In this document: one piece after another, positions 6,309-61,521 of the stretch
Layout of the letters: each line of letters begins with the position of its first letter
Position numbering within the stretch: the stretch's first letter is position 1
Assembly (NCBI GenBank): GCA_017654935.2
Contig: CM065699.1
Coordinates: 44,720,903-44,784,902, forward strand
Reading direction: 5' to 3'
DNA length: 64,000 nucleotides
From: Phymorhynchus buccinoides
Taxonomy: Eukaryota > Mollusca > Gastropoda > Neogastropoda > Raphitomidae
Notes under the pieces: generated by a model
The model's database searches: none
What the model was told of the DNA's origin: nothing
What the model saw: only the letters and a program-made list of their open reading frames with translations
Made by a program: the position numbers and the translations under genes

Positions 6309-6426
6309 ACAAAAGAGTAAGCTTTTTCTTCCCTGCTGGGGAAAAACCAATTTCAATTGGAATTTTATTGCCAATTTTCTTGCACGATATTGCACAAGTA
6401 CAGAAGTCTCTACTTGTATGTTGCAG

Positions 6427-8651
6427 TTGCATTTGGAACTGCTGGACCTTTGTTTGGGAAGAAAGTGTCAGCAGGATCTGCAGAAAGTGAAAGCACGCCG
6501 AAGGACAAACCTGCTGAAAGCACTGCAAGTTGCAGTGCAACTGTGAGCACAAAGGATCCTCCACCTCCACCCGTACGACCATTGGTGCCACTCTGTGACA
6601 GATTGCATCACCAAGAAGCCACCCTGGTCGCCTTTCTGGCAGAAAACTCTATGTCCATGTCCATGGCCCCTCGTCTGGTTTCCTTGATCAGAGAGTTAGG
6701 CAGGGACCCCACGGCACTAAACAAACTGTCAATGGGCCGGGCCTCCGCTACCTATAAACTTACATATGGCCTTGCCAAGTCCTTGAAACAAGATATGATT
6801 GATGACATTGCTGATCAGTTCTTCAGCCTGAACTTGGATGAAGCGACTAGTTCTAACAATGAGAAGGTGTTGACTGTCCTCATTAGTTTTTTCAGGGAGA
6901 AAAGAGGCATGGTGGTAGTTCAGCATCTGGGCTCTGTCAGCTTGCTGCGAGTGACGAGTGCTCGTATTGTTGAAGCCTTGGACAAGATGCTGGTCAAGAA
7001 CGGTTTGAAGTGGAACAGGTGTTTGTCCATGTTAATGGATTCTTGTAATGTTATGAGGGGTGTAAGAAGTGGGGTGGAGAAGACCATCAGAGAGGAAAAA
7101 GCACCACACCTTCTTGACATAGATGGGGACAGCTGCCACCACGTGCACAATGCCTGCAAAGCATTCACATCAGTGTTTGGTGGTGAGATTGAGAAGCTGT
7201 TTGGAGACATCTACACAGACTTTCAGAATAAACAGTTCCAAGATTGCCTTAGCCTCATCTGCTTCGCCTTGGATCTGAAATACACCAGGCCTGAGAGATT
7301 CCTCCATCACAGGTGGCTGTCTGCCTTAAACTTGAGTGCGGATACGTTGCGACTATTTGATGGTTTGACCGTCTTATACTACGAGTTCTTGCCAAAGATG
7401 GAAAAGACTGCGTACCACTCCAATGTGATCAACATCTTCCACACCAAGAATGTCAATGAGTCCTGCAGGGATGAAATCAGAGACCTGAGAAAGCAACTTG
7501 GCACCATTGGCCTGACATCTGAGGGCAAGTTGAGAAAGCAGAGAATTGTGAAGAGGCTGTTCTATCACAGGGAGGACACTTTGCTTCAGCTGAAGTTCTA
7601 CGTTGATGCACTTGCTGTCCTGAAGGAGTTTGTCATGCTGTTTCAGCGCAAGGATCCCCTCATCCACATTCTTCATGATCAGCAGTTGTCTTTGGTGCGG
7701 CAGTTCCTCCTCCTCTTCATCAAACCAGAGTGTATGAAGCCCCTGAAGGCGCAGACGTTGTTATCCCTCAACCTGGATGACAAGGCCAACCACCTGGAAC
7801 TTGAAGCCATCTTCCTTGGGAAGGCAGAGGCATCGTTGAAGAAACTAGGGCCTGAGATTCAACGTAGCTTCCGTGAGACGGCACTGAAGGGATACATTGC
7901 TTGTGGCCGAGTTCTGCTTCAGAAAATGCCATTGTGCAATGGGTTCCTAGAAGCTGCTGGTGGGTTAAACCCTGAAGAGAAGTGCTCGGTGGCCCTGGAG
8001 AAGTGCCTGAAGCTGCCATCTTTTCTGCCTGCTGATGTGATTGCTGCCCCATGCCAGTCCACTGAGGAATCGGATGAAGAAGATCCAGAGCAGAAGAAAG
8101 AGGCTGTACAAGTTGCCTACAATAGGGAGGTGCGCAACTTCCTAGGTGAGGACAGCATCCCTGCCTTTGGGGATGATCAGCGGGTGGACGAGTGGTGGGC
8201 AGCCACTTTTACGAAGTACCCTCTCCCTCTCCTTTCGCGTGTTGTGAAAGCAGTGCTGTCCACTTTCCATGGCCCATTGGTGGAAAGCTCCTTCAACATC
8301 ATGGGTGATGTCATCGACCAGAGGAGTGGGAGGATGGACATGAGTACTTTTGATGCATACCACACCGCGCACTATGCCCTCATGGCTTCAGGAAAACCAG
8401 CCACCTCTCTGTTTCACAGGGGAAATGTCATGAGAGAGCCTGTGAACAAGAGGTTGATTCAGAATATATCCACTGCTCGTCAATCTTACCATGAGGTGTT
8501 GGCACACAAGTCTGAGGAAAAGAAGAGGAGAGCAGCACTGTGGAACAAACACCAGGCTCGTGTGGCATCCAAAAGAAAAGCCATAGAGACCCTAAAGGAG
8601 GAAGCAAAGAAGGCCCGCCTTCAGCATCTCATGAAGCTAGCCAGGAAATAA
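6427..8651 (+). CDS. Transposase-like gene, exon 2 (hAT-like catalytic region)
   Basis: Carries residues 93-833 of the spliced protein and has no internal stop. Candidate acidic residues are D230 in LNLDEATS, D297 in [10 protein letters not shown] and E712 in [12 protein letters not shown]. The 67-residue D-D spacing and the late E inside a segment resembling the hAT C-terminal dimerisation region ([10 protein letters not shown]...[19 protein letters not shown]) fit an RNase H-fold hAT transposase. [15 protein letters not shown] segment (about 330) and an HRWLSALN segment lie between. The last ~100 residues are Lys/Arg/Ala-rich, probably coiled-coil or nuclear-targeting. Family assignment is by motif recall; another DDE superfamily or a domesticated host gene is possible. 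Intact coding stands out in a window of decayed elements. Confidence 0.7.
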
Positions 8652-23565: not shown

Positions 23566-26500
23566 TATCAATCAAATCAAAACATTTTTATTATCTCTGA
23601 AAAGAGAAATTGCGTCCAGGTGCCACGATTATGACATAGACATTGACATTAAACATACAATAAAATACATTGAACGGTTATAATATGGCATAGAAGATTA
23701 AAGGTATAGAGCACACATGCATTATCATATTTACAAGCACAATTTAAAATGCAAAGAAATGCATTATATCTAATTGAACAAAGACCAAAATCACAGTCAT
23801 AAACATATTGCACACCTTCAGGGTACACACTCTATTTCGTCCCCCCCCTCCCCTCCCATACACTCACACTTTACTTAAACACACATGCTAACAATCAGTA
23901 AGAGGCAACAATTTTGAAAGATTCATGATGGGTTTAAGAAATGGATAGAGGAAGGGATAAAAGATTTCTGGGCCCTGGATTTCAGTTTAAAAGCTCTGTA
24001 GCGGCGTCCTGATGGTAAAAGATCATAGTGTTTGTTTAAAACATGAGAAGTATCAATTGCAATCTGCCTGGCCTTTTGCTTTGCGCGTCTTTCATACAAC
24101 TCTTGCATTCCAGTCTCTCTCATCCCAATAACCTTGCTGCACACATTCACTACATCGTTCAACACTTTCTTGCTCCCCACACTCAAACTCCCGAACCAAC
24201 AAATAAAAGACACAGTGAGCAAGGACTCAATGCAAGAGCGATAATATGTGTGTAAAATACCAGAATCAATGCCAATATTCCTAAGTCTCTGTAAAATAAA
24301 CATTCTTGATTGGCATTTCTTGTGAATGCACTCTGTGTTTTTATTAAAAGTCAGTTTGTTGTCTAAAATGGTTCCTAAATATTTATATTCAGTAACTCTG
24401 TCCACAGCTTGACCATCAATGACCACACTTGGAACAGGCAGCGGATCCTTTCTAAAAATCAATTAACATTTCTTTCGTTTTTACAACATTAAAATCCAGA
24501 TAATTTTCTTTGCACCAGAGGGAGAATTTGGCTATTTCATCAAAATATTGAGAGTCAGAATTAGAAAGATCTTGAATAGCAGAATCGTCAGAATATTTAA
24601 TTATGGGAATATTTTCAGTACCTTGACAGTCATTTGTGTACAGGGTGAACAGAACAGGAGAGAGGACAGTACCTTGGGGAGCGCCGGTTGAAGTAGAGAG
24701 TTGAGAGGAGAATACAGACTGATAGCGGACTGATTGGGTTCTGTTGAGGAGAAAGTTCACAAGCCAGAGAGTCAGTTTAGGATCAACATGGAGGTGTAAC
24801 AGTTTCATGGCTAAAAGGTGCAGCTGGATTGTATTAAAAGCTGAGGAAAAGTCAATAAAAAGAACACGAACAAAAGTCTTTGAATCATTTAAATGAATAA
24901 AAGCGTTGTGAAGCAGAGTTAAAATCGCATCATCAGTACCCCTGTGAGACTTGTAAGCAAACTGAAGAGGGTCGAGATATTGGTTAGTAAAAGTTAAAAG
25001 GTGTCCAAAAACAAATTTCTCAAAACATTTCATCACAACAGAGGTTAGGGCGACAGGGCGATAATCATTTAGAGCAACAGGGTTATTTTTCTTAGGGACT
25101 GGGCAAATATTGGGAACAGCACACATTTTTAAAGACCAGTTAAAAATAGTAGTAAAAACATCACACAGTTGAGACGCACAAGTTTTCAAAAGTCTACCGT
25201 GTATTGCGTCTGGGCCTTCCGCTTTTCTAACATTCAGTTTAGAGAACAAAGATTTCACAACATCTGGACTAGTCTCAATCTGTTCATAATCGTTGTCTTT
25301 GATCTGATCTTCTAAACTGGTTAACATTTTGTTAAGTTCTGGCTCCAAATCCTTTCTTTCAAAACGACAATAAAATTCGTTTAACTTGTTTGAAAAAGCG
25401 TACTGTTCATCTGCTGTCATAGAGGTAGTGCTTTTCACGTTTCTAGTCTCCCCAGTAAGAATTTTCAACCCGTCCCAAGCGTCCTTCACATTGCCTGTCT
25501 GAAACTGATGTTCTACTTTCTCTTTGTATTCCCTCTGCCCTCTACGTAATTCCCCTCTAAGCTCTTTCTGCACTACTTTTCTCTCGGCTTTATCTCCTGA
25601 CTGAAACGCTATTTTTTCCCTGTTTAAAGTTGTTTTGATTGATTTGGCTATCCATGGTTTGTTATTTGGGAACAGTTTAATGGTTTTAGTAGGGATGACA
25701 TTTTTTTTCACAAAAACGAATATAACATGTCACAACATCAGCAGCCTCATGAACATCATCACATGAATCAACAAGCACACTCCAATCAGTACATTCAAAA
25801 CACCCTTTCAACTCTTCCACACTCTCAGTCGTCCACACTTTCACACTCTTTTTCACAATGGGTTCGGTTTGGATTTTGGGTCTGTATGCAGGGATTAAAT
25901 GAACTGTGTTGTGGTCAGAAGCGCCAACAGGGGGGAGAGGCAGAGAGCGGTAAGCATGTGGAACATTGCCGTAGCAAAGGTCGATTGTTTTGTCTTGTCT
26001 GGTGTTGCATGTCACGTACTGTTTAAAAGAGGGTAAAGTTTTTCTTAAATCACATTTGTTAAAATCACCGAGGATAAAACAAGGGGCGTCAGCAGAAATC
26101 AGTTGTAGGTCACGAACAGCAGCAGCTATCTCCCTTCCCGCACGTGCAGCAGAGGCTTGGTATACACAAGAGTGACGAACACACGACCAAATTCACGGGG
26201 AAGATATTTGGGTCTTAAAGATACTGAGATCAGTTCAACGTCATTCGTACACACTCTCTTTTTCACTGCCACATTCGCCCTGTCACACCAGTTTTCATTC
26301 ATGTACAGGCACACGCCACCGCCTTTCTTCTTTCCAACTTTCTCACAGTCTCTATCCACTCTATATGGCACACCAAAACCATCAATCGACACACAATCAT
26401 CACTGACTTTCTCGCATAACCACGTTTCTGTAAAACAAAGCAGGCACGAGTTCCTGTATTCATTTAAAAACTGAGTATTTGCCCGAATTTCATCCAAATT

Positions 26501-26890
26501 GCAGTTCTGTCCATTGGGATTGATCGAACGAACGTTTGACAAGATCATTGATGGAAGTGGAAGTTTAGTCCTGTTCCTTCTCATTCTTCTCCTCACTCCT
26601 CCTCTCTGTCCTCTCTTTCGTTCTTTCGTCTTTCCAGTCACTCTCTCATTCTCTCTCTCATCTATCAGTTCAGCAGGGAATAAGTATCCAGAAATCGCAG
26701 AAATGTCTTGGGCAGTTTGTAAGCGGAGTAAAAACTTACGATCATAACGTAAGACGCCTGTGCTACCTTCCTGCTGTCCGCCATTTCTCTCACAAGACAC
26801 AAACACAGTAAAAACACAGGTCCGAAATAAAATCAAGACGATCACTAAAAACTTCACAAATGTCACACTCTTCATCTTTCACCACTGATA
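23566..26890 (-). pseudogene. Rex1/Babar-like LINE, nearly full length but frameshifted
   Basis: On the minus strand an endonuclease frame (26875-26126) reads LSNVRSINPNGQ, CFTETWLCE, a DRDCEKVGKKKGGGVCLYMN stretch and YLPREFGRVFV. GDFN follows in another frame near 26065, then GASDHNTVHL (26015-25686). The RT frame (25711-24452) has EGPDAIHGRLLK, ALNDYRPVALTSVVMKCFEK, LFIDFSSAFNTIQ, GAPQGTVLSPVLFTLY and YSDDSAIQ in place of YADD. The C-terminal part (24462-23923) has KYLGTILDNKLTF and LLPSGRRYR. Three frame changes break it. The wording matches the Rex1 clade best. The first 29 residues are strongly hydrophobic and signal-peptide-like, unusual for a LINE. The 3' end on this strand is AT-rich near 23575. 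Confidence 0.85.
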
Positions 26891-29460: not shown

Positions 29461-30258
29461 AACCGAAAGAGACCCCACAGCTAACTCCTACAGTGGGTGT
29501 AAATATGCGCACACAAAATCAATATTTTGCAAAGAAATATAGGATTATAATGCAAAAACACGAACTGAATCTAGACTTTAATAACATAAACTGAAACATG
29601 ATAAAATAAAATGAAAGGTAAAATTAAAATAAAAAGAAAGATTGTTGACCTCACACGTTTAGACATAATGCCTTCAACTAATAAAATAATAATAAACAAA
29701 AACTATGCTTATCAATATTTGGGTTTTTGCGATGATTCGAAGAGCTTGTAGAGATCGATCCAGAGGAAACTGTTACTCATACCGGTAGGCTTCTTTAAAT
29801 TGTCACAGGGGTTTAAATGGTTTTGTGGTACACAAGTTGTTTACATTGTACTGAGCAAAGACTGTACCCCTATACAGTATCTTTGTACTGAGCAAGGAAC
29901 ACGTGGGAAACACCACCTACCCGCTGGAGGGTAGATGCAGTGGTCATTTAAAGCCCGGCATATTTCAGACCTCATTACTTTTGACGCTTACCTATATATT
30001 TTCCTACTGGTAGCCCCCAAATGTCCATCCTCTACGACGTCATTGCACGCGCACCTACTGGGTGTTCTTCATTCTTTGTAGTCCCCAAACATTTGACCCC
30101 GTGATTTTCAGACATTGCATATTCTTTTTTTTTAAAGCGTTATTATCTAACGCGAATGTTAACCATTGAGAAAAGTTAGTATTTGTTTTCAAAAAAGTAA
30201 AACACAAAATCTGGTTTACTGGTTTTGTTGTGAAAAGTTATATATATATATATATAGT
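29461..30258. other. Intergenic
   Basis: No gene recognised. There is AT-rich sequence, a (TA)n run at 30239-30257, and nothing else I can name. Confidence 0.5.
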
Positions 30259-30407
30259 TTGCTTTGATAAAGCTTTTCTTTGTCCAATGTCTTTATTTGT
30301 GAACCTCAGAAACAAAACCAGTTAATGTTAACTTTGAGTAATGTTCGTGAGATTTTTCTTTCATGCTATATATATATATATATATATATAGCATGAAAGA
30401 AAAATCT
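30259..30407. repeat. Partial array unit and AT-centred palindrome
   Basis: 30259-30351 is a direct copy of the part of the array unit that starts AGTTTGCTTTGATAAAGC and ends AATGTTCGTG. It then switches to GAGATTTTTCTTTCATGC, the inverted form of the array-unit start, followed by (TA)n and the direct GCATGAAAGAAAAATCTC at 30391. This makes a perfect hairpin with 18-base arms and an AT loop, and marks a rearranged edge of the hammerhead array. Confidence 0.85.
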
Positions 30408-30660
30408 CAGTGAATAGCCAGCTCCGTACCCCTACTCTGAAGGACTGAAAAGTTAGTGCATTTGAAATGCAGAATAGTTTGCTTTGATAAAGCTTTTCTG
30501 TGTCCAATGTCTTTATTTGTGAACCTCAGAAACAAAACCAGTTAATGTTAACTTTGAGTAATGTTCGTGTTCAAAAAATAAAATTAAAAAATAAAGAAAA
30601 TTAAAAAAATTAAAAAGTTATATAAATTGTGCTGATTTACTTTTTCTCCCAATGGGGGAG

Positions 30661-30744
30661 GGACAGTGCCTTATGCAAAGACAGCTGTTTCGATCTTGAG
30701 AAGATCTCATCAGTTTGCATGATTGGCCTGCAAATTGACTGTCC
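30661..30744 (-). ncRNA. Type I hammerhead ribozyme, copy 1
   Basis: Minus strand: helix I outer GGACAGT pairs with ACTGTCC; helix I inner ATGCAAA pairs with TTTGCAT; CTGATGA (plus 30707-30713); helix II GATCTT-CTC-AAGATC (30692-30706); GAAA (30688-30691); a minimal helix III in ACAGCTGT; then cleavage triplet GTC with H17 = C (30680). Cleavage is expected between 30680 and 30679. All invariant core positions (C3 U4 G5 A6, G8 A9, G12 A13 A14, A15.1/U16.1) are present. The tiny helix III is characteristic of animal mobile-element hammerheads, which often work as dimers. Confidence 0.85.
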
Positions 30745-31245
30745 AGTGGATGGCCAACCTGAGCAAAAAAGACATTCTACAAGAGAATGGTGTCCTCTGC
30801 ATCAAATCGAAAATCCACAATAAAAGCAAACCAGCACAAAGTTAAACCAGAACTAGTAAAAATCTTATGTAAAACGAACAAAATAATAATGTTCTGAAAT
30901 TTTAATTTCAAAACCTAATAGACATGACTAGGGAGGGCTAACTACTGAGATGGTATCCAAATTAAGGATAAAAATAGCATGAAAGAAAAATCTCAGTGAA
31001 TAGCCAGCTCCGTACCCCTACTCTGAAGGACTGAAAAGTTAGTGCATTTGAAATGCAGAATAGTTTGCTTTGATAAAGCTTTTCTGTGTCCAATGTCTTT
31101 ATTTGTGAACCTCAGAAACAAAACCAGTTAATGTTAACTTTGAGTAATGTTCGTGTTCAAAAAATAAAATTAAAAATTAAAGAAAATTAAAAAATTAAAA
31201 AGTTATATAAATTGTGCTGATTTACTTTTTCTCCCAATGGGGGAG

Positions 31246-31329
31246 GGACAGTGCCTTATGCAAATACAGCTGTTTCGATCTTGAGAAGATCTCATCAGTT
31301 TGCATGATTGGCCTGCAAATTGACTGTCC
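31246..31329 (-). ncRNA. Type I hammerhead ribozyme, copy 2
   Basis: Same helices and core as the first copy. The only change in the motif is H17 = A (plus-strand T at 31265), giving a GTA cleavage triplet, still within the NUH rule. It lies 585 bases from the preceding motif. Confidence 0.85.
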
Positions 31330-31837
31330 AGTGGATGGCCAACCTGAGCAAAAAAGACATTCTACAAGAGAATGGTGTCCTCTCTGCATCAAATCGAAAA
31401 TCCACAATAAAAGCAAACCAGCACAAAGTTAAACCAGAAATAGTAAAAATCTTATGTAAAATGAACAAAATAATAATGTTCTGAAATTTTAATTTCAAAA
31501 CCTAATAGACATGACTAGGGAGGGCTAACTACTGAGATGGTATCCAAATTAAGGATAAAAATAGCATGAAAGAAAAATCTCAGTGAATAGCCAGCTCCGT
31601 ACCCCTACTCTGAAGGACTGAAAAGTTAGTGCATTTGAAATGCAGAATAGTTTGCTTTGATAAAGCTTTTCTGTGTCCAATGTCTTTATTTGTGAACCTC
31701 AGAAACAAAACCAGTTAATGTTAACTTTGAGTAATGTTCGTGTTCAAAAAAAAAAATAAAATAAAAAATTAAAAAAAATTAAAAAATTAAAAAATTATAT
31801 AAATTGTGCTGATTTACTTTTTCTCCCAATGGGGGAG

Positions 31838-31921
31838 GGACAGTGCCTTATGCAAAGACAGCTGTTTCGATCTTGAGAAGATCTCATCAGTTTGCATGAT
31901 TGGCCTGCAAATTGACTGTCC
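31838..31921 (-). ncRNA. Type I hammerhead ribozyme, copy 3
   Basis: Identical to copy 1 across the motif, with the canonical GTC triplet (H17 = C, plus 31857). Spacing from copy 2 is 592 bases. Confidence 0.85.
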
Positions 31922-32435
31922 AGTGGATGGCCAACCTGAGCAAAAAAGACATTCTACAAGAGAATGGTGTCCTCTCTGCATCAAATCGAAAATCCACAAT
32001 AAAAGCAAACCAGCACAAAGTTAAACCAGAAATAGTAAAAATCTTATGAAAATCTTATGTAAAATGAACAAAATAATAATGTTCTGAAATTTTAATTTCA
32101 AAACCTAATAGACATGACTAGGGAGGGCTAACTACTGAGATGGTATCCAAATTAAGGATAAAAATAGCATGAAAGAAAAATCTCAGTGAATAGCCAGCTC
32201 CGTACCCCTACTCTGAAGGACTGAAAAGTTAGTGCATTTGAAATGCAGAATAGTTTGCTTTGATAAAGCTTTTCTGTGTCCAATGTCTTTATTTGTGAAC
32301 CTCAGAAACAAAACCAGTTAATGTTAACTTTGAGTAATGTTCGTGTTCAAAAAATAAAATTAAAAATTAAAGAAAATTAAAAAATTAAAAAGTTATATAA
32401 ATTGTGCTGATTTACTTTTTCTCCCAATGGGGGAG

Positions 32436-32519
32436 GGACAGTGCCTTATGCAAATACAGCTGTTTCGATCTTGAGAAGATCTCATCAGTTTGCATGATTG
32501 GCCTGCAAATTGACTGTCC
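32436..32519 (-). ncRNA. Type I hammerhead ribozyme, copy 4
   Basis: Identical to copy 2 across the motif, with a GTA triplet (plus-strand T at 32455). Spacing from copy 3 is 598 bases. It is the first motif a minus-strand transcript would meet, since the array ends about 75 bases beyond it. Confidence 0.85.
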
Positions 32520-32593
32520 AGTGGATGGCCAACCTGAGCAAAAAAGACATTCTACAAGAGAATGGTGTCCTCTGCATCAAATCGAAAATCGAA

Positions 32594-33110
32594 AGCATCT
32601 GTTTTAACTTAAGATTACTTCTGTAGCACACAATACCTATACATTTATTTTTAGCTGCATTTCAAGCTTTTTTTAAAAACAAACATTATAAAGAAGAATG
32701 ATGGGCGTGTCTATAGTACACTGCCATGAATGGATGCAATAACACAAACTATCCATAGTACAAAACGCCCAATCTTAAAGCAATTCACAGCTCAACTTGT
32801 GATGATACCTGCAAGGAAGATATTGTCAGTCTTGATATGCTTGACCTGATGTAGTATGAAGAAAAAAAAGTACATGTACGTTAGGAAGAGCCTCCCAAAC
32901 AGAAGCACTCACCAAGCAAATATCTTCTCTTACCTGCATTATCCTTTTTTTTCTTCTGAAAAACATGTTTGCTACATTCGTGCATCCAGCCTCAGTAATA
33001 TTCGATTGAATGGTGTTTGGCTGTGTGAAAGGGAAGAAGGTGGGCATAATGCTACTTGTTGAATTGCTACCTGCTCAATTCCTCGCCCTCCCCCTTCACC
33101 TACCAAACGG
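32594..33110. other. Spacer or LINE 5' untranslated region
   Basis: No gene seen. The array stops abruptly at about 32593. This stretch may be 5' sequence of the CR1/L2-like LINE whose ORF2 opens at 33111, with a C-rich run near 33080-33100 just upstream of the start. Confidence 0.4.
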
Positions 33111-36039
33111 ATGAGTATAATTTCTAACTTACTTATTGTTCCCGTTGCTTCGCCTACAAAAGATGCCAATTTTATTGTTGCCCAGTTTAACCCCCGTTCC
33201 GTTGGCGTCCCACAGAAACGTTCTTCTATTAATTATTTTATTGTAGAGAACGATGTTGATATTTTCTGCATCACTGAATCCTGGCTTCTGCCTTCGGGTG
33301 ATGAAGCTAAATGCGCTGATCCCTCTCACCCTGGCTACAAAACCATCTCCTATCCTCGCTCTTCACGTGGCGGAGGCATTGCCTATGTCGTGCGTGAAAA
33401 ACTGTGCCTCCATCTCACCTCTACCTCCCTCTTCCCCTTTCCACACTCCTCCTTTGAACTGGCCCAGCTCTCCGTTACTCTCCGTCAGCACTGCCTACAG
33501 CTTTTCTGCCTCTACCGCCCCCCTCCCAACAAGAAAAACAAACTTTCGGACTCCCTCTTCCTCGACGAGTTTCCCTCTTTGCTGGAGCACTGCAAACACT
33601 ATCAGCGGTGTTCCAATCATCATGGGAGACTTCAACATTCATGTTGATGTTCCCACTGACCCCCTCACCCTCCGCTTCACCACACTGCTGGATGACTTCG
33701 ACCTGCACCAGGCTGTGACCTTCCCCACCCACCAGAAAGGTCACACCCTTGACCTGGTTATCGTCAGACGTGACGACGAAGACGTCCTGTGGTCTACTGC
33801 TCCTGACTCCTTCCTGGACTTTTCTGACCATCTCTGTGTTCTTTCCTGCCTCCGTTTATCTCGCCCTTCATGCCCTCCTGTGTATGCTGAGACCAGGAAG
33901 ATCTCCTCCATCGACATCACTGCCTTCATGTCTGACCTCAGGGCCAGACTTGACTCATCTCTATAGCCTTCTGCCGACCAGCTCCACCACCTCCTGACCA
34001 GTCTACTCGACCTCCACGCCCCTGTCATCCGTCGCAAGATCTCCAGTAGGCCTCCATCACCGTGGTATGCTTCTGTGGCACCTGAGGTGACTCAGGGTAA
34101 ACAAGAACGCCGCCGTGCAGAGTGCCAGTGGGTTAAGACTGGACTTGAAATTCACAAACAGATTTTTCGAGCCATGAACAAAATTGTGTCTGACATTATA
34201 GATAAGGCCAAATGCTCTTGTTTGAATGCCCAAATTCTCGCTTGTACCACTTCATGTCAATTGTTTAGTTTAGCCAACTCCCTCCTTGGTAAACCAAAGT
34301 CCACACCTCTACCTTCTTCTATCCCTGTGTCTGAACTCCCTCAACGTTTCTCTGATTTCTTTCACAGCAAGATAGCCACCATCCGCCACAATCTTGATTC
34401 TCAATCTGCTCCACCATCAACTGACTCTGTCCCTGATCCCTCCTTTTCTGGCAGTATGTGGTCTGAGTTCCGTTCTGTTTCCACTGATGAGGTTAAGAAG
34501 ATTTTGACCCGAACTCAGACTAAAACCTGTGAACTAGACCCTCTACCTTCATCTCTCTTCTCCCAGTGTCTTGATGATCTCCTTCCTTACTTTACATCCA
34601 TCATCAATGAATCTCTATGTTCAGGCCGCTTTCCAACTCATTTCAAATCTGCAGTTGTCAAACCTCTCTTAAAGAAGCCTAGTCTTGATCCTGAAAATCT
34701 AAAGAACTATCGGCCTGTCTCTAATCTTTCATTCCTTTCTAAGCTTACGGAAAAGGTGGTTCTTAAACAGCTGTCTGACCATCTTCAGGTAAATGATCTC
34801 TACTATCCAAACCAGTCTGCTTATCGAGCAGGTCACAGTACTGAGACAGCCCTCTTAAAGATAACGAACGACCTGCTCACTGCCTTGGATGAAAACAAGG
34901 TTTCTCTTCTCTCTCTCCTTGATCTTTCTGCAGCGTTTGACACTATCGACCACTCCATCCTCATTTCTAGACTTCACACCTCCTTTGGTCTATCTGGGGC
35001 TGTTCTTTCCTGGTTTTCTTCCTACCTCTCTGATCGCACACAGAAAGTTGTTGTCAATGGTTCTCCATCTCTTCCAAAAGGTCTTCAGTTCGGTGTGCCC
35101 CAAGGTTCAGTCTTAGGCCCTATCCTTTTTGTTCTTTATACCCAACCTCTCTCCGCCATCATCAACCAGCATTCTATTCTACATCATAGCTTTTCTGATG
35201 ACAATCAACTGTACATTTCTGCCCACCTGAGTCAATTAGATCAAATGATTTCTTCTTCTAAGTTGTGCATCTCTGCTGTTAAAACATGGATGTTTTACAA
35301 CAAACTGCAACTGAATGCTGATAAGACAGAGATGATTCTTGTAGCCTCTAACCACACAATTAAAACTCAGGTTCTCCCAGGTTCTGTAGACATTGATGGC
35401 ACTGAGATCAAGCTATCGGCATCCGTCCGCAATCTAGGTGTTACTTTGGACCAAACCCTTTCTTTCAAACAGCATGTTTCCAATGTTTGCAAGGCTTGCT
35501 ATCTAGAACTTCGAAGAATTAGTTCCATCCGCCGTTTCCTCTCTCAGGATGCCCTGAAGACTCTAGTATGTGCTTTTGTCCTGTCTCGCCTTGACTACTG
35601 TAACTCACTTCTTGCTGGCTGTCCATCAATTCTCATCTCTAAGCTCCAACGGGTCCAGAATAATGCTGCTCGTCTCATTTCTCGCTCCCCTAGGTACGAT
35701 CACATCACTCCGGTTCTTCGTTCCCTACATTGGCTCCCAGTTCAATCACGTATTGACTACAAAATTCTCCTCCTTGCCTTCAAGTCACTGAATGATCAAG
35801 CTCCCCTGTATCTCTCTGATCTTCTTCATCTCTATGTCCCAGCTCGCCAACTACGTTCGTCCTCTGATTCTCGTCTCCTTTCCATTCCCTCCATCCGTCT
35901 CAAATCTGCTGGCCAACGTTCTTTTTCTTGTCAAGCACCATCTCTGTGGAATTCTCTGCCTTCTCCTCTCCGACACTCCAACTCAGTCTCCTCATTCAAA
36001 ACCTCTCTTAAAACCCATCTTTTCCCTGCTGCGCCCTAA
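33111..36039 (+). pseudogene. CR1/L2-like LINE ORF2 (endonuclease plus RT), nearly intact
   Basis: Opens at ATG 33111. Endonuclease motifs: FNPRSVG, FCITESWLL, SRGGGIAYVV, IIMGDFNIHVD, HTLDLVIV and FSDHLCVL, so catalytic residues look present. One frameshift falls near 33605 and one in-frame TAG at 33964-33966. The RT is fully open from there: CELDPLPSSLF, NLKNYRPVSNLSFLSKLTEK, LLDLSAAFDTIDHSIL, FGVPQGSVLGPILF and FSDD at 35191-35202 where FADD or YADD is usual. The C-terminal segment has RLDYCNSLLAGCP, HWLPVQSRIDYK and KTHLFPAAP, diagnostic of the CR1/L2 group. Only two lesions in about 976 codons implies a young insertion. ORF1 was not found upstream. Confidence 0.9.
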
Positions 36040-37242: not shown

Positions 37243-39027
37243 TGTTACGCCCAATCCATGAAATTGCCCATTTCATGAAATGGGCAAAATGGTTTGCCCA
37301 ATTCGTGAAATAGCGTATTTATAACTTGCAATTGAGAAAAGCAATATGAATGAAAAACGGTTTTTGTTCCTTAGCACACATGGATCAATAATTGGTTCAA
37401 ACGAATGAGAAATCTCATCTGTAGATGAGTTAACATTATTTTATTCAGATTTAATTTGATAAAACGTTTGATTCAACATGTGGCTCAGGTATGCCCCAGC
37501 TTAGCATCTGGTCGAGTTGGGGGGCAGGATGGGGGTGCAAATACAGTGTAGAAAAGTGTGATACTGTTAACCGCCGTTTTGTCCAAATTCCGCCGTTTTG
37601 TCTATAGACAAAACGGCGGGGCTAGAACCGCCGTTTTGTCCAAATTTTCTATTATGATTTGGACAAAACGGCGGTTCAACAATCCGCCGTTGTCTATAGA
37701 CAAAACGGCGGGTTGGACAAAACGGCGCCCGATTTTGAACCGCCGTTTTGTCCAAATGAAAGTTGGAGTTATAAAAACTCATTCTTGACAAGTTCTCTTT
37801 TTGTTTTAATCTTTGTTAAATAAAATTAATAACAAGCTGACCACTGACACTGGTCACTTTGGCCTAATTTTACCGTTTGAATGCTAATTAGTGTATTAGG
37901 AGATCATATGAACAATTGTTGATGTGGTTGACCAGTGGTCAGCGTCACTGACCAGTGGTCATTTTGGCCTATTTTCACTGTTTGACTGCAAATTAGTGTA
38001 TTAGGAGTTCAAATGAACAATGTTTGATGTGGTTGACCAGTGGTCAGTGTCACTGACCAGTGGTCACTTTGGCCTATTTTCACTGTTTGACTGCAAATTA
38101 GTGTATTAGGAGAGAGAGAGAGTCAGTGACACTGACTAATGGTCAACCACATAAAAAAATAGGCCAAAGTGACCACTGGTCAGTGACACTGACCACTGGT
38201 CAACGACATCAAAATTTGTTTATTTGAACTCCTAATACACTAATTTGCAGTCAAACCGTGAAAATTGGCCAAAGTGACCACTGGTCAGTGACACTGACCA
38301 CTGGTCAACGACATCAAAATGTGTTCATTTGAACTCCTATTGCACTAATTTGCAGTCAAACAGTGAAAATAGGTTAAAGGGACCACTGGTCAGTGACACT
38401 GACCACTGGTCAACATCAAAAATTGTTCATTTGAACTCATAATACACTAATTTGCAGTCAAACAGTGAAAATAGGCCAAAGTGACCACTGGTCAGTGACA
38501 CTGACCACTAGTCAACCACATCAACAATTGTTCATATGATCTCCTAATACACTAATTAGCATTCGAACGGTAAAATTAGGCCAAAGTGACCAGTGTCAGT
38601 GGTCAGCTTGTTATTAATTTTATTTAACAAAGATTTTTAAACAAAAAGAGAACTTGTCAAGAATGAGTTTTTATAACTCCAACTTTCATTTGGACAAAAC
38701 GGCGGTTCAAAATCGGGCGCCGTTTTGTCCAATCCGCCGTTTTGTCTATAGACAAAACGGCGGATTGTTGAACCGCCGTTTTGTCCAAATCATAATAGAA
38801 AATTTGGACAAAACGGCGGTTCTAGCCCCGCCGTTTTGTCTATTGACAAAACGGCGGAATTTGGACAAAACGGTGGTTAACAATACCATTGAATCAGTAT
38901 TATTAAATGTTTGATACCTGTGTGAATGGGGATTCAAAAATGTTATATACATCTGTCCATTTCATAAATTGGGCAAAGCAAATTGCCCATTTCATGAAAT
39001 AGGCAATTTCACAGATTGGGCGTAACA
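37243..39027. mobile_element. 1.8 kb foldback element
   Basis: Termini TGTTACGCCCAATC and GATTGGGCGTAACA are flanked by TA (37241-37242 and 39028-39029). About 66 bases of imperfect TIR contain CCCATTTCATGAAATGGGC palindromes. Inside, a second pair of long inverted arms (about 37567-38110 and 38130-38877) carries up to seven CCGCCGTTTTGTCC motifs per arm, several paired as perfect 30-base palindromes (for example 37591-37620), then tandem ~115 bp units rich in GACCA(G/C)TGGTC and CAGTG(T/A)CACTG. The right arm has more units than the left. A unique ~250 bp stretch sits only on the left (37310-37560). No coding capacity; the short frames are palindrome artefacts. Confidence 0.8.
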
Positions 39028-42762: not shown

Positions 42763-44553
42763 GGTAGACTAGCTTAAGATCAAATGGAATGTGAAGTGTT
42801 GTTGACCTCGGTGACCATGGTAGACTAGCTTGAGATCAAATGGAATGTGAAGTGTTGTTGACCTCCGTGACCATGGTAGACTAGCTTAAGATCAAATGGA
42901 ATGTGAAGTGTTGTTGACCTCGGTGACCATGGTAGACTAGCTTAAGATCAAATGGAATGTGAAGTGTTGTTGACCTCGGTGACCATGGTAGACTAGCTTG
43001 AGATCAAATGGAATGTGAAGTGTTGTTGACCTCCGTGACCATGGTAGACTAGCTTAAGATCAAATGGAATGTGAAGTGTTGTTGACCTCGGTGACCATGG
43101 TAGACTAGCTTAAGATCAAATGGAATGTGAAGTGTTGTTGACCTCCGTGACCATGGTAGACTAGCTTAAGATCAAAATGGAATGTGAAGTGTTGTTGACC
43201 TCGGTGACCATGGTAGACTAGCTTGAGATCAAATGGAATGTGAAGTGTTGTTGACCTCCGTGACCATGGTAGACTAGCTTGAGATCAAATGGAATGTGAA
43301 GTGTTGTTGACCTCCGTGACCATGGTAGACTAGCTTGAGATCAAATGGAATGTGAAGTGTTGTTGACCTCGGTGACCAGCAGGTAGACTAGCTTAAGATC
43401 AAATGGAATGTGAAGTGTTGTTGACCTCGGTGACCAGCAGGTAGACTAGCTTAAGATCAAATGGAATGTGAAGTGTTGTTGACCTCGGTGACCATGGTAG
43501 ACTAGCTTAAGATCAAATGGAATGTGAAGTGTTGTTGACCTCCGTGACCATGGTAGACTAGCTTGAGATCAAATGGAATGTGAAGTGTTGTTGACCTCCG
43601 TGACCAGCAGGTAGACTAGCTTAAGATCAAATGGAATGTGAAGTGTTGTTGACCTCGGTGACCAGCAGGTAGACTAGCTTAAGATCAAATGGAATGTGAA
43701 GTGTTGTTGACCTCGGTGAACAGCAGGTAGACTAGCTTCAGATCAAATGGAATGCGAAGTGTTGTTGACCTCGGTGACCAGCAGGTAGACTAGCTTGAGA
43801 TCAAATGGAATGCGAAGTGTTGTTGACCTCGGTGAACAGCAGGTAGACTAGCTTCAGATCAAATGGAATGTGAAGTGTTGTTGACCTCGGTGACCATGGT
43901 AGACTAGCTTAAGATCAAATGGAATGTGAAGTGTTGTTGACTCGGTGACCAGCAGGTAGACTAGCTTCAGATCAAATGGAATGTGAAGTGTTGTTGACCT
44001 CGGTGACCATGGTAGACTAGCTTGAGATCAAATGGAATGTGAAGTGTTGCTGACTCGGTGACCATGGTAGACTAGCTTGAGATCAAATGGAATGTGAAGT
44101 GTTGTTGACCTCGGTGACCATGGTAGACTAGCTTGAGATCAAATGGAATGTGAAGTGTTGTTGACCTTGGTGACCATGGTAGACTAGCTTAAGATCAAAA
44201 TGGAATGTGAAGTGTTGTTGACTCGGTGACCAGCAGGTAGACTAGCTTAAGATCAAATGGAATGTGAAGTGTTGTTGACCTCAGTGACCATGGTAGACTA
44301 GCTTAAGATCAAATGGAATGTGAAGTGTTGTTGACCTTGGTGACCAGCAGGTAGACTAGCTTAAGATCAAATGGAATGTGAAGTGTTGTTGACTCGGTGA
44401 CCAGCAGGTAGACTAGCTTCAGATCAAATGGAATGTGAAGTGTTGTTGACCTCGGTGACCAGCAGGTAGACTAGCTTAAGATCAAATGGAATGTGAAGTG
44501 TTGTTGACCTCGGTGACCAGCAGGTAGACTAGCTTCAGATCAAATGGAATGTG
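42763..44553. repeat. 56-58 bp satellite, 32 monomers
   Basis: TAGACTAGCTT recurs 32 times from 42765 to 44525 at 56 or 58 base spacing, depending on whether a monomer ends ACCATGG or ACCAGCAGG. Monomers share GATCAAATGGAATGTGAAG, TGTTGTTGACCTC and (G/C)GTGACC. Variants include TTGAGATC/TTAAGATC/TTCAGATC. The long variant dominates the right half. The array is cut by the LINE inserted at 44554 and resumes at 50089. Confidence 0.98.
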
Positions 44554-45676: not shown

Positions 45677-45801
45677 CTCGCTCCCCTCTCTCTTTCTCTC
45701 TCTGACTGTGTGTGCGTGTGGGTGTTTCTGACTGTGTAACAGTGTGTGTGATGCGTGTGTGTGGGTAGAACCCCTATCAATAAATAAATGTGTACTTAAG
45801 A

Positions 45802-48800
45802 ATGGAAACGATTTCTGTATGTACGATTAATGTAAATGGACTTCGTAATAAGTTTAAAAGAAAAAGTTTATTTAGATGCCTGAAACAGAACAATTGTGAC
45901 ATTGTGTGCATGCAAGAAACTTATATCCTTGAAAAGGATCAAGATGTATGGCAAAAAGAATGGGGTGGCAGTTTACTTTGTTCACCAGTTTCTAATCAAA
46001 GTAAAGGTCAGGTCACTTTAATTCGAAAGAACTTTCCATATAATGTGCAATGCACCTATAAGTCGGATCGAGTTCTATCAGTAACGTTTAATGATGAAGG
46101 TCAGCAAGTGAATGTTATAAACGCGTACGCTCCTAACAATTCTAATGAAAAGAGAGTATTTTATGAAGAGTTAGCTGATTATACTAATAACCTAGAAGGA
46201 GAGAGCATCCTTTGCGGGGATTTGAATTGCGTGTTAAATAATGAATTAGACATAATTAATGGACAACCACATAGTGCAGCTGATGTGCGAGGTTTTCAGA
46301 ACCTTATTCTGTCTTGCTCTTTCAATGATGTTTGGCGGCTTCATCACCCTGAAGAAAAAGAATATACATGGAGCCGTAGATCACCATTTATTGCCAGACG
46401 ACTGGATTATTTATTGGCTACTGATTGTATATTTGACAAAATTGTCTCCTGTAATATCTTGTCTGTATCACAGACGGATCACAGGCTAGTAGAATTAAAG
46501 TATAGGGTTTCTCAAGTTACAAGAGGTCCATCATATTGGAAGTTTAATGATAGTCTTTTACGTGATATTGACTTTGTACAAACCATGAACACAATAATTG
46601 AACAATACTCTGAAAAATATGAACACATAGATGTTCAAACAAAATGGGATTTGTGTAAAATTAAAATACGAGAATTTTCCATGAAGTACTCAATTCACAA
46701 AAAGCAAAAGCAAAAAAAACAATTAAAGGACTTTCAATTTCGGCTCTCTAACGCCGAAAAAGCACTGTCATCAACCCCAGACAACTTTCAGCTGTTGAAT
46801 CAGGTAGACTCTCTAAAACGATCGATAGAAGTATTTGCTTACCAGGAGGCCAGAAGTGCACAGGTACGATCTCGCATCAAATTTATTGAAGACGGGGAAA
46901 AGAATACTAAATATTTTTTAGGCATGGAAAAAGCCAGGGCCAATGGTAAAATTATTGATAGGTTGAAAAACTCAGAAGGGGAAATCTTTTCTTCACAGGA
47001 GAGTATTATGGAAGAACAAGTTCGATTTTATAAAGACATATACACAAACAAAAGAGAGTTTGAAGAAGCGAAAGCAAATGAATTTATGTGTAATTGCAAT
47101 GTCCCTAAATTAACAGAGGAGCAGCGACTAGATCTAGATTCAGAGCTTTCATTAGCTGAAATAGCGTCAGTATTAAAGACAATGAAAGGGGGATCTGCGC
47201 CTGGGCCTGACGGAATAACTACTAATTTTATCAAATTCTTTTGATCTAAATTACAAAAACTGATTTTCGATTCGTTCAATGCCGCTTATCAACAGGGGGA
47301 GATGTCAGTGACCCAAAGGCAGGCCGTTCTCACTCTTATTCATAAGGGGAAGGGACTAGCTAGAGACGAACTTTCTAACTGGCGTCCTATTTCTCTCACT
47401 AACACCGACTATAAACTGATGGCTAAATGCCTAGCCTTACGCCTATCTAAAACACTTCCGCATATAATACATGATAATCAGGTGGGATTTATGAAAGGAC
47501 GGAAGGTTAGTACAATGATAAGATTGATTGATGATTCAATTGACATGATGAACACATCAAATAAACCAGGCATACTTCTGGCAGTCGACTATCGCCGTGC
47601 CTTCGATTCCATCTCAAAAGAGTTTATAATCTGGGCATTTAAACGTTTTGGCTTTGGGGAACACATCGTAAGATGGGTCCAAGTGATCACTGCTAACACA
47701 GAGAGCTGTGTCAACTATTTGGGTTGGTTGTCTGAGAGCTTCCCAGTCAGGTGTGGAATACGTCAAGGATGCCCCTTCTCCCCACTGGCATTTATTTTAG
47801 CACTAGAGATGCTAGCGATTAAAGTTAGAGATGATACGCAACTGAAAGGATTGAAACTACCTATCTTGACAACAGCTACAACTCTAACAAACTTGCTGAA
47901 AATGTTATTATATGCTGACGACATTACTTTATTTTTGCAAGATCAGCATGATTTAGAAAGGGTTCTCAACATAATTAGTAAATTTTCCGAATTTTCTAAT
48001 CTGGATATTAATAAAAACAAAACTGAAGCCATGTGGCTGGGTTCAAAGAAACGTTCTGATGAAACATTTTTTAACCTAAAATGGAAGACCAGAGTTAAAA
48101 TAGTTGGAATAGTTTTCTCCAACTCCACTCCTGCCTCCACAATTGAGGAAAACTGGTCAACAAGAATAGATAACATACAGAAAATAATGGTATTGTGATC
48201 AAAACGTAATCTGAGTATAAGCGGGAAAATATGTATTATCAAAACATTTTTAGTGTCACAGTTTGTGTATATCATGCAGGCTTTAGTGGTTCCAACGAGT
48301 GTTCTTAACAAACTAAACACTCTTTTATTCAGATTTCTATGGAATAAGAACTTTTCGAACAAAAAAGCATATGAAAAGGTTAAAAGAATCGTTGTTTGCA
48401 GTGACATAGAAAAAGGGGGTTAAAAATGATTGATGTCAATACAATGCAGACGTCATTCCTTTTGTCTTGGGTAGTCCAGCTGCTCCAGTCTGAAGGGGAA
48501 ACATGGTCGATAATCCCTAAGTCCCTCTTCTCTGTCCTTGGCACCAGTTTATCCTGTTTGAAATCAGATGTTTCTTCAACACAATTTGCTGGATTGAATT
48601 ATATCAAATCCGAATTCTGGAAAAATGTACTAAAAATATGGCTAGATAATATGACTAAGCTTAAGAACGGCCCTCGTGATACATTATTTTTTAAAAACCA
48701 TGACTGTTTATGGAATAACTCACGATTAATGTACAGACAAAAATGTTTGTTTTTTAAAGAGTGGGCTTCTGCTGGCATCTCTCTTATTTCAGATATGGTA

Positions 48801-49511
48801 GTTGACGGTAATGTTTTGTCCTTCGAATATGTATGTGAGAAGGTAGGTAATAAGCCAACTCGTCAATTTGAATATAATGCAATATGCACAGCCTTGCACT
48901 CCCGTTCAGCCGAACAAATGCTTCGTTTATATTCTACCGAAGATAGGAATATAATCACACCTCGCGTTAAAATCACTCCTCAAATCATTCGACATCATCT
49001 GACGACATATTCTACTATTCAACCATGCGCTCTAAATTTCTGGCTACGTAAATACAATATCGTTCTTACAGAACATCACTGGTCAATTGCACGCATTTCT
49101 ACTAAAGAAGAAAGACTAAGACTCCTACACTGGAAACTACTTCATAATATCTATCCCACAAATATTCTTCTCTATAGAATGGGTCTCAGAAATAATACTC
49201 TTTGTACTTTCTGTAACGAAACTGATTTCATTGAACATTTGTTTTTCAAATTTTCTAGAATAGAGAAAGTGTGGAAAACGTGCACTGACGTAATCTTCAA
49301 GGAAACCAACCAACAAATATCTCTAACAGAAACTGATATTCTATTTGGATACATGCCAGACAAAGGCAAAACACCGTTTGTTCGATATGTAAATCATATA
49401 ATTTTAATTGCTAAAATGGTGATTAGTAAATTTCGGTATGGCATTGGTTATGACATTACAACCCTTTTTGAAAAAGAACTAGATATACGGAAAACATTTT
49501 TAAATCCATAA
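45802..49511 (+). pseudogene. Tx1/L1-like LINE ORF2 (endonuclease plus RT), three lesions
   Basis: ATG at 45802, about 1,236 codons. Endonuclease: TINVNGLRN, VCMQETYIL, NAYAPNN, LCGDLNCVLN, ARRLDYLLA and QTDHRLVEL. RT: GSAPGPDGITTNF, LSNWRPISLTNTDYKL, LAVDYRRAFDSI, CGIRQGCPFSPLAF, YADD at 47911-47922 and KTEAMWLGS. C-terminal: RLLHWKLLHNIYP and CTFCNETDFIEHLF, a cysteine/histidine motif usual in L1/Tx1 ORF2. Lesions: TGA at 47242-47244 and 48196-48198, both where relatives have Trp, and a one-base loss in the G run near 48416-48421 that shifts the frame before KMIDVNTMQ. The catalytic residues all survive, so this is a recently inactivated copy. Confidence 0.9.
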
Positions 49512-60551: not shown

Positions 60552-61273
60552 TACCAACACGATAAAGCAAAATGGGATTGCTTTAAATCCTGTCTTGACG
60601 CGGAGTGTCTCATAAACGACCCCCAAGACCCGGATATTGAGACTCACTACGAGAACATCAGACAGATGATTCTCAGAGCAGCCGATGCGGCAATCCCAAA
60701 ACACGCCCCAAAAGCTAACGGAAAACACCAATTCAACTCGGAATGGTGGAACGAAGAGTGCGACAAGGCCACATCCGACAAAAGATACGCTCTGCGAAGA
60801 TTCCAACTAGACGTATCAAAACTAAACGAACATGCCACAGAGGCATGCCAAAATACTGTGGACGATGTACGGCAAAGACACTGGGAACAGTTCTGCCAAG
60901 AAGAAATCCAAGACCCACGTGACTCCACCAAAATGTGGAGGAAAATCAGAATACTCAAACGGCGTGCGCGTCCAGCCGAGAGGCCACTTTTTATAGATGG
61001 CAAACTCACTCGAAACACACAAGACAAGGCAGACGCACTAGCTGATGTCTTCGCCAGAGCAAGTCAAACAGAGCACCTCTCTGATTAAATGATCCAAACA
61101 AGACTGGAAGCGGAAGCTGACTTTGAAGAACCGGTGTTTAGCGATAACACTGCCCCCTTCAACAGTGACCTCACACTTGACAAAGTGATATCAGCAATCG
61201 GTGGGCACTAGACAAGATGCAAAAGCTCGGCATCAATGGTCGACTCTACCACTTTGTCAAGACCTTATTGGCA

Positions 61274-61521
61274 AACAGGCAAATGGCAGTCAAAGTTGGC
61301 TCATCTACATCAGAGACACACCCCCTAGACATGGGAGTACCTCAGGGCAGTGTCATCGCCCCACTACTATTCAGCATCATGCTACATGATCTGGATCAAC
61401 AGGCAAATGGCAGTCAAAGTTGGCTCAGCTACATCAGAGACACACACCCTAGACATGGGAGTACCTGAGGGCAGTGTCATCACCCCGCTACTATTCAGCA
61501 TCATGCTACATGATCTGGATA
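61274..61521 (+). repeat. 124 bp tandem duplication inside the RT domain
   Basis: AACAGGCAAATGGCAGTCAA starts at 61274 and again at 61398. Each copy runs through the CCTCAGGGCAGTGTCATC (VPQGSV) motif to ATGATCTGGAT(C/A). The copies differ at about six bases, for example CCTCAGGG versus CCTGAGGG. 124 is not a multiple of three, so the duplication also shifts the frame. Confidence 0.95.

What the first reader, a model, noticed from the sequence alone, without database searches (positions are those of the whole stretch)
30391..32593. Tandem ~587 bp units each carrying a complete hammerhead ribozyme (retrozyme-like array)
Seen: four near-identical units with, on the minus strand, CTGATGA, a 6 bp helix II (GATCTT-CTC-AAGATC), GAAA, a minimal helix III within ACAGCTGT, a GTC or GTA cleavage triplet and a two-part helix I (ATGCAAA/TTTGCAT and GGACAGT/ACTGTCC). 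Known: type I hammerheads with tiny helix III in tandem units define metazoan retrozymes and occur in Penelope-like elements; their RNAs self-cleave and can circularise. Inference: minus-strand transcripts yield ~585-600 nt monomers. No protein is encoded, so movement would need another element's reverse transcriptase. The class is known, but this family appears not to be something I can name.
Basis: partly seen in the sequence, partly recalled or inferred. Interest (0 to 1): 0.93.

Follow-up and report, generated by a model that had tools for sequence, protein, structure and literature searches.

The report
Hammerhead retrozyme inserting into TA microsatellites
A protein-free repeat in a likely mollusc genome carries a hammerhead ribozyme motif (predicted to cut its own RNA) and sits in TA microsatellites with two fixed start sites and head-to-head arms, the pattern reported for Penelope-like retrotransposons, whose enzyme therefore likely copies it.

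Summary
In detail: 3.7 tandem units (30391-32592), each with a complete type I hammerhead on the minus strand. The same descriptor gave no hit in 19.2 Mb of shuffled sequence. Across related copies helix II shows compensatory changes at three pairs, and 98 of 102 copies in the same genome keep an intact core. Rfam gives no hit at its cut-off, probably because helix III is tiny.

One genome search gave 149 matches (a lower bound), which I grouped into 40 places. In these, 69 of 78 mapped tracts start at just two positions of the unit, 86 nt apart (sites A and B). After removing duplicates and a second family, 50 of 60 starts lie on (TA)n runs of at least 10 nt, against 0.09% of window positions. 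The other ends are scattered. Of 16 two-ended insertions that could be classed, all are inverted head-to-head pairs; 14 have one arm from A and one from B. An optional tail on one of two inverted arms, and AT-rich simple targets, are published for Penelope-like elements (PLEs).

Best reading: a retrozyme, larger than the reported 170-400 nt, likely copied in trans by a PLE-type enzyme from circular RNA into TA microsatellites. Cleavage, circles and the enzyme are untested; the PLE gene search did not complete.

The parts
30239..30256 (.). (TA)n target tract left of the small insertion
   Evidence: motif A> at locus position 840, 18 nt
30257..30347 (+). arm of a small two-ended insertion starting at site A (AG|TTTGC...), 99% identical to unit positions 30477-30567
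30348..30366 (-). short inverted arm of the same small insertion, starting at site B
   Evidence: with what follows it makes the 62-nt perfect palindrome 30348-30409
30367..30390 (.). (TA)12 tract shared by two back-to-back site-B starts (centre of the palindrome)
30391..32592 (-). main array, 3.7 units, ribozyme sense on the minus strand; starts at site B, far end 32592
30388..30473 (-). 86-nt tail segment (between sites B and A), example from unit 1
30571..30631 (.). A-rich tract of the unit (U-rich in the ribozyme-sense RNA), variable in length
30661..30744 (-). hammerhead 1, cleavage nucleotide C at 30680
31246..31329 (-). hammerhead 2, cleavage nucleotide A at 31265
31838..31921 (-). hammerhead 3, cleavage nucleotide C at 31857
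32436..32519 (-). hammerhead 4, cleavage nucleotide A at 32455
30974..30977 (-). site B (ATAG on +, CUAU in RNA), unit 2; equivalents at 30388, 31561, 32164
31060..31063 (-). site A (ATAG on +, CUAU in RNA), unit 2; equivalents at 30474, 31647, 32250

Best explanation
The array is one copy of a dispersed, protein-free hammerhead element that starts at two fixed sites, mostly on TA microsatellites, and is likely a retrozyme copied in trans by a Penelope-like reverse transcriptase/endonuclease. Predicted cycle: (1) minus-strand transcripts of the array would be cut by the hammerheads; helix III, a weak 2-bp stem with a palindromic ACAGCUGU, suggests that two copies act as a dimer. (2) The 585-598 nt monomers would be closed by a host ligase into circles that fold into a branched rod with the ribozyme able to form. 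(3) A Penelope-like enzyme would break a (TA)n tract. Because (TA)n is palindromic, both DNA ends carry the same 3' sequence and could pair with CUAU loops in the RNA. (4) One end would prime at site A and the other usually at site B, 86 nt further 3' on the RNA, and each would be extended round the circle, up to several times. (5) The two cDNA arms would be joined head to head at a variable point, or one arm joined directly to the target. Shown: the motif and its covariation, the two start sites, the (TA)n junctions, the A/B inverted pairs, the scattered far ends. Inferred: cleavage, circles, the identity of the enzyme.
For: Ribozyme: descriptor 4 hits against 0 in 19.2 Mb of shuffles; 98 of 102 copies keep every core letter; three helix II pairs have changes on both sides and 96.8% of cells pair, against 25-42% when slid by 1-3 columns (on 19 of the 20 distinct sequences). 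Dispersal: 149 matches, from 40 scored of 2588 first-look candidates, grouped by me into 40 places. Starts: of 78 tracts of about 60 bp or more in 39 loci plus the window, 30 begin at ref 1 (site A), 33 at ref 495 by BLAST (junction at 501, site B), 6 within 497-506 and 9 elsewhere. Target: leaving out 3 duplicate loci and 5 tracts of a second family, 50 of 60 starts lie on an alternating TA run of at least 10 nt and 48 on at least 13 (up to 3 letters of each run are also in the unit); 57 of 63950 window positions follow a run of at least 10. Two-ended inserts: 14 A/B, 2 B/B, 0 A/A (with hand reading); P about 0.002 if the two ends were independent. Template: of those 60 tracts 0 have the far end at ref 203-210, where cut linear RNA would end (206/207; nearest are 214 and 215), and 50 run past it. 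Of four CUAU words in the unit only the two with highest predicted P(unpaired), 0.95 and 0.98, are start sites. PLE precedent: tail optionally on one of two inverted pLTRs, AT-rich simple targets, two adjacent start sites and extension of both target strands.
Against: No PLE gene has been found: 26 tries of the PF01541 search got no answer. The tail is 86 nt here, 30-40 nt in published PLEs. Monomers exceed the published animal retrozyme range. No target-site duplication can be read in (TA)n. No RNA data. Predicted pairing of the circle is 61-65%, below the more than 70% quoted for other retrozymes. Uncut multimeric transcripts could replace circles as template. The 40 places are the best matches only; (TA)n of 10 nt is missing at 10 of 60 starts. 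Far ends include inner junctions and breaks of the BLAST chains, not only true ends. The A/B count rests partly on hand reading.
Confidence: 0.68

Rival explanations
1. The units are pseudo-LTR pieces of a Penelope-like element itself: an internally deleted PLE whose pLTR, with its hammerhead, was multiplied in tandem. It would move by the same enzyme but would be PLE debris rather than a separate retrozyme lineage.
For: Same insertion anatomy as PLEs; hammerheads are known in PLE pLTRs.
Against: No ORF above 55 aa in the array; 75 near-full units in 39 loci, about 0.6% apart outside the A-tract in the 70 units compared, behave as one compact family; helix I has an extended two-part form with an internal loop, whereas PLE motifs are described as minimal.
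Confidence: 0.2
2. A LINE with an APE-type endonuclease copies it. The window holds several such LINEs, one starting about 470 bp to the right of the array.
For: Of 10 window ORFs tested, 6 match RVT_1, 1 the APE-type endonuclease family and 1 RNase H.
Against: LINE insertions would not be expected to start at two fixed internal sites, on (TA)n, with a second inverted arm that also starts at a fixed site. Twin priming would leave a variable outer end on the inverted piece (recalled).
Confidence: 0.1
3. It is ordinary satellite DNA with a hammerhead, spread and lengthened by unequal exchange, not by reverse transcription.
For: Tandem arrays of up to about 12 units (L048); within-locus units are not significantly closer than between-locus units (0.50% against 0.62%; 325 of 1000 permutations as low).
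Against: Dispersed places that open at A or B, mostly on (TA)n, and inverted A/B pairs are not expected from exchange alone. Later exchange may still change unit number.
Confidence: 0.05
4. The enzyme copies uncut multimeric transcripts; no circle is needed.
For: In vitro a PLE used unprocessed RNA and hammerhead mutants did not affect insertion. Arms run past the cleavage site in 50 of 60 cases, which uncut multimers also allow.
Against: In published animals such repeats give abundant circles; multimers would have to escape several hammerheads.
Confidence: 0.3

Closest known systems
Metazoan non-LTR retrozymes (Acropora, Mytilus, axolotl; Cervera and de la Pena 2020, PMC7229834)
   Same: Type I hammerhead in tandem repeats of low GC, no coding capacity, helix III of two pairs with a tetraloop as in the axolotl Amex2 motif and invertebrates
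   Different: Units 585-598 nt against about 170-400 nt; (TA)n targeting, two fixed start sites and inverted A/B arms were not described in the parts I read
Penelope-like elements (Adineta Pen2/Pen3, PMC3846280; Anolis PAc, PMC11167929)
   Same: Hammerhead (PAc), tandem or partial tandem copies, head-to-head inverted ends, optional tail on one inverted end, two start sites, AT-rich simple targets
   Different: No RT or endonuclease gene in the unit; tail of 86 nt instead of about 30-40; strong preference for (TA)n
pDo500 satellite of Dolichopoda cave crickets (PMC2837043)
   Same: About 500-bp tandem unit with a hammerhead, double-hammerhead cleavage proposed
   Different: Sequence not compared here; no dispersal signature in the passages I read
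Plant LTR retrozymes (PMC4918200)
   Same: Non-coding element of similar size with hammerhead and circular RNA
   Different: Type III hammerhead, LTR, PBS, PPT, 4-bp TSD, Ty3/gypsy partner

Membership tests
metazoan non-LTR retrozyme | type I hammerhead in each unit of a tandem repeat | tested here: met
metazoan non-LTR retrozyme | low GC (<45-50%), no protein gene | tested here: met
   GC 33-34%; longest ATG ORF 55 aa
metazoan non-LTR retrozyme | monomer about 170-400 nt | tested here: not met
   585, 592, 598 nt; the paper's discussion allows circRNAs from 150 to over 1000 nt
metazoan non-LTR retrozyme | dispersed copies in the genome | tested here: met
   149 matches, grouped into 40 places
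metazoan non-LTR retrozyme | highly self-paired RNA | tested here: inconclusive
   z -7.1 to -8.3 on the ribozyme strand, -2.8 to -3.3 on the other, but 61-65% paired, and unrelated windows reach lower z
metazoan non-LTR retrozyme | self-cleavage and circular RNA in tissue | not testable with these tools
   no RNA or bench data
Penelope-like element (autonomous) | ORF with telomerase-like RT and GIY-YIG endonuclease | tested here: not met
   no ATG ORF above 55 aa in the array
mobilised by a Penelope-like enzyme | head-to-head inverted ends | tested here: met
   16 distinct two-ended insertions classed; other loci have one start only
mobilised by a Penelope-like enzyme | optional tail on one of the two inverted ends, i.e. 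two start sites | tested here: met
   A/B 14, B/B 2, A/A 0; tail length 86 nt differs from the published 30-40
mobilised by a Penelope-like enzyme | AT-rich simple-sequence target | tested here: met
   50 of 60 starts on (TA)n of at least 10 nt
mobilised by a Penelope-like enzyme | PLE gene present in the same genome | not tested
   PF01541 search not answered in 26 tries
plant LTR retrozyme | type III hammerhead | tested here: not met
   closed helices II and III, open helix I: type I

The most novel reading that the evidence does not exclude
Retrozyme circles are copied by a Penelope-type enzyme in two-ended target-primed reverse transcription: a break in a self-complementary (TA)n tract gives two identical 3' ends, which prime at two different single-stranded CUAU loops of one circular ribozyme RNA. 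The genome keeps each event as a pair of inverted arms, one with and one without the 86-nt tail. This would identify the enzyme behind animal retrozymes and make TA microsatellites their landing sites.
Probability: 0.45. Interest if true: 0.85.

Novelty: new variant of a known kind. Interest (0 to 1): 0.74.

Why it matters
Which enzyme moves the ribozyme-bearing circular RNAs of animals is an open question: the authors who described them named Penelope-like elements as a strong candidate only. Here most of 40 sampled genomic places carry insertion marks published for Penelope-like elements, so the question becomes directly testable with a defined template (two start loops) and a defined target, (TA)n. 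It also links a microsatellite class to a mobile element.

Tried and rejected
Cleavage-site scar: within the window the cleavage nucleotide alternates C, A, C, A and is the only substitution shared by two units outside the A-tract, which suggested misreading by reverse transcriptase at the ligation junction (a precedent is suspected for viroid clones). The genome refutes it: 99 of 102 copies have C and 3 have A (two in the window, one in L053).

Rfam: no hit at cut-off; weak RAGATH-1 match only. MicroRNA models matching the palindrome around 30342-30418 stay below cut-off.

Target-site duplication: between the window flanks (30100-30260 and 32561-32760) the only exact words of 8 or more are T/A-rich ones and one 8-mer away from the ends; in (TA)n none can be read.

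Folding as evidence: the ribozyme strand is more stable than shuffles, but the 103-window background (linear folds, 12 shuffles) has sd 4.7 and its eight lowest values are -10.7 to -40.2, so I use it only as weak support. A stricter comparison timed out.

Linear cut monomers as template: rejected, 0 of 60 far ends at the cleavage position.

Relatives in viral contigs: none found with two patterns (records near the window's own genome may be left out there). Two peptides of the second family's extra stretch: no Pfam match.

Novelty in print: the ten paper searches listed no title or abstract start on (TA)n targeting or two-ended insertion of retrozymes; the lists were capped and most papers were seen as listings only. 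Two papers on PLE hammerheads (PMC4209133, PMC5785218) are not held.

Papers: PMC7229834 read in abstract, introduction, part of methods, results parts 1-2 of 3, discussion; PMC11167929 abstract and main text; PMC3846280 passages and discussion; PMC4918200 passages and one section; PMC7761336, PMC6155905, PMC2837043, PMC3088659 passages; PMC3185496 passages and one section.

Full report
Check. Each has a complete type I hammerhead on the minus strand. A strict descriptor (core, helix I of at least 5 pairs, helix II of at least 4, helix III of at least 2) finds these four and nothing else in the window, and nothing in 150 dinucleotide shuffles, 19.2 Mb. As a natural control, CTGATGA followed by GAAACAGCTGT at 10-24 nt occurs in 20 stretches of IMG/VR; 0 of 20 have both helices. 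Rfam misses it at the curated cut-off; I put this down to a helix III of only two pairs.

Ribozyme quality. Across 39 further loci plus the window, 102 copies span the motif: 98 keep every core letter (exceptions: C3 in 2, G8 in 1, an extra A in GAAA in 1), and the cleavage nucleotide is C in 99 and A in 3. On 19 of the 20 distinct sequences the structure pairs in 96.8% of cells, against 25-42% when slid, and three helix II pairs change on both sides; the changed helices sit mostly in diverged copies at the same loci. In one shuffling control the number of such pairs is reached in 21 of 500 and the number of pair types in 451 of 500; the covariation score and cells paired in 0 of 500. Helix III alone is predicted unstable (+2.4 kcal/mol as hairpin), but its palindrome ACAGCUGU pairs with a second copy at -11.1 kcal/mol, so dimer action is likely, as published for weak helix III motifs. 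The ribozyme helices fit into the predicted circle at a cost of about 4.5 kcal/mol before core contacts are counted.

Genome. The window lies in a 2.12-Gb assembly; one search with a 600-base unit gave 149 matches, with only 40 of 2588 candidates scored. I grouped the matches into 40 places and fetched the 39 outside the window. Of 75 near-full units, 70 (three duplicate loci left out) differ on average by 0.62% between loci outside the A-tract: a young family, though the sample favours the best matches.

Insertion anatomy. On a circular map of the unit (ref 1 = window 30474), 69 of 78 tract starts fall at two places, A (ref 1) and B (junction ref 501; 6 of them off by a few letters), 86 nt apart; the opposite ends are scattered. 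A recount without the duplicates L040, L057 and L062 gives 65 start-type tracts of 74; 5 of these belong to a second, diverged family whose own unit has TATATAT beside site A, and are left out. Of the remaining 60 (24 A, 36 B), 50 lie on an alternating TA run of at least 10 nt and 48 on at least 13, counting up to 3 letters that the unit also has; 57 of 63950 window positions follow a run of at least 10. Restricting to 52 tracts of 90% identity or more gives 45 and 43. The junctions read (TA)n-G-TTTGC and (TA)n-G-CATGA, that is, the RNA word CUAU at both sites. The unit has four CUAU words; the two with P(unpaired) 0.95 and 0.98 are the start sites, the other two (0.54, 0.39) are not.

Two-ended insertions. 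An automatic pass gave A/B 14, B/B 2, A/A 0, still counting the duplicates L040 and L057 and L038, and missing L034, L035 and the window's small insert. Read by hand, and dropping the duplicates and L038 (its A arm is only about 79% alike), the count is again A/B 14 (L030, L034, L035, L037, L042, L044, L050, L051, L052, L053, L056, L059, L066, window), B/B 2 (L046, L049), A/A 0; L043 and L048 are too complex to class. L035 has a 57-bp filler between its arms. L053 lacks (TA)n at its B end, L049 at its left end. Chance of 14 or more of 16 with independent ends is about 0.002. The remaining loci have one start and one truncated or gap-bounded end; a few of these (L036, L041, L045, L061) also have a short TA run at the far end.

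The window explained. Left of the array lies a complete small A/B insertion (30257-30366) between (TA)n tracts 30239-30256 and 30367-30390. The main array starts at B from that second tract and runs to 32592. Two B starts back to back around one (TA)n make the perfect 62-nt palindrome 30348-30409. L054 shows the same back-to-back arrangement.

Mechanism. Of the 60 tracts none has its far end at ref 203-210, the ribozyme cut (nearest 214 and 215), while 50 run past it; so cut linear monomers are not the usual template, and circles or uncut multimers are. Some far ends are inner junctions or BLAST breaks. PLE copies have head-to-head inverted ends, with a tail optionally on one of them (PMC3846280), favour AT-rich simple targets, and a purified PLE extends both target strands from two adjacent starts that bound the tail (PMC11167929). 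The same marks here, in an element with no gene, make a PLE-type enzyme acting in trans the best explanation. That last step is inference: the search for a PLE gene did not complete.

What is known and new. Animal retrozymes, their circles, and PLEs as candidate partner are known. A unit of nearly 600 nt, landing in (TA)n, two start loops and A/B inverted pairs are, as far as the ten searches named in Tried and rejected show, not described for retrozymes. I therefore call it a new variant of a known kind.

Noticed in passing
L069 145-1193 (also L068 750-1744, parts of L036, L038, L041, L043, L051): A second, related hammerhead repeat family, about 646-bp period in L069, roughly 71-83% identical around site A and the ribozyme, with its own helix II (GTCTTT/AAAGAC in L069) and an extra stretch of unknown origin (no Pfam match).
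   Followed up: partly
window 30348-30409; L054 about 907-926: Back-to-back site-B starts around one (TA)n tract, giving palindromes.
   Followed up: partly
L030/L040, L052/L057, L061/L062: Pairs of loci with the same arm layout and flanks in opposite orientation: segmental duplication or uncollapsed haplotypes of the assembly.
   Followed up: no
window 42763-44553: 56-bp satellite, 31.6 copies, 95% matches.
   Followed up: no
window 37842-38601: 105-bp repeats in both orientations with extreme folding energy on both strands (z -24 and -40 in the window starting at 37761).
   Followed up: no
window 33063-36039, 45784-49511, 60465-63345, 23923-26878: Several LINE-type open frames (APE-type endonuclease, RVT_1 or RNase H in those tested); the one at 33063 begins about 470 bp right of the array.
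   Followed up: partly
window 6321-8648: 776-aa open frame with a weak DUF4371 match (below cut-off).
   Followed up: no
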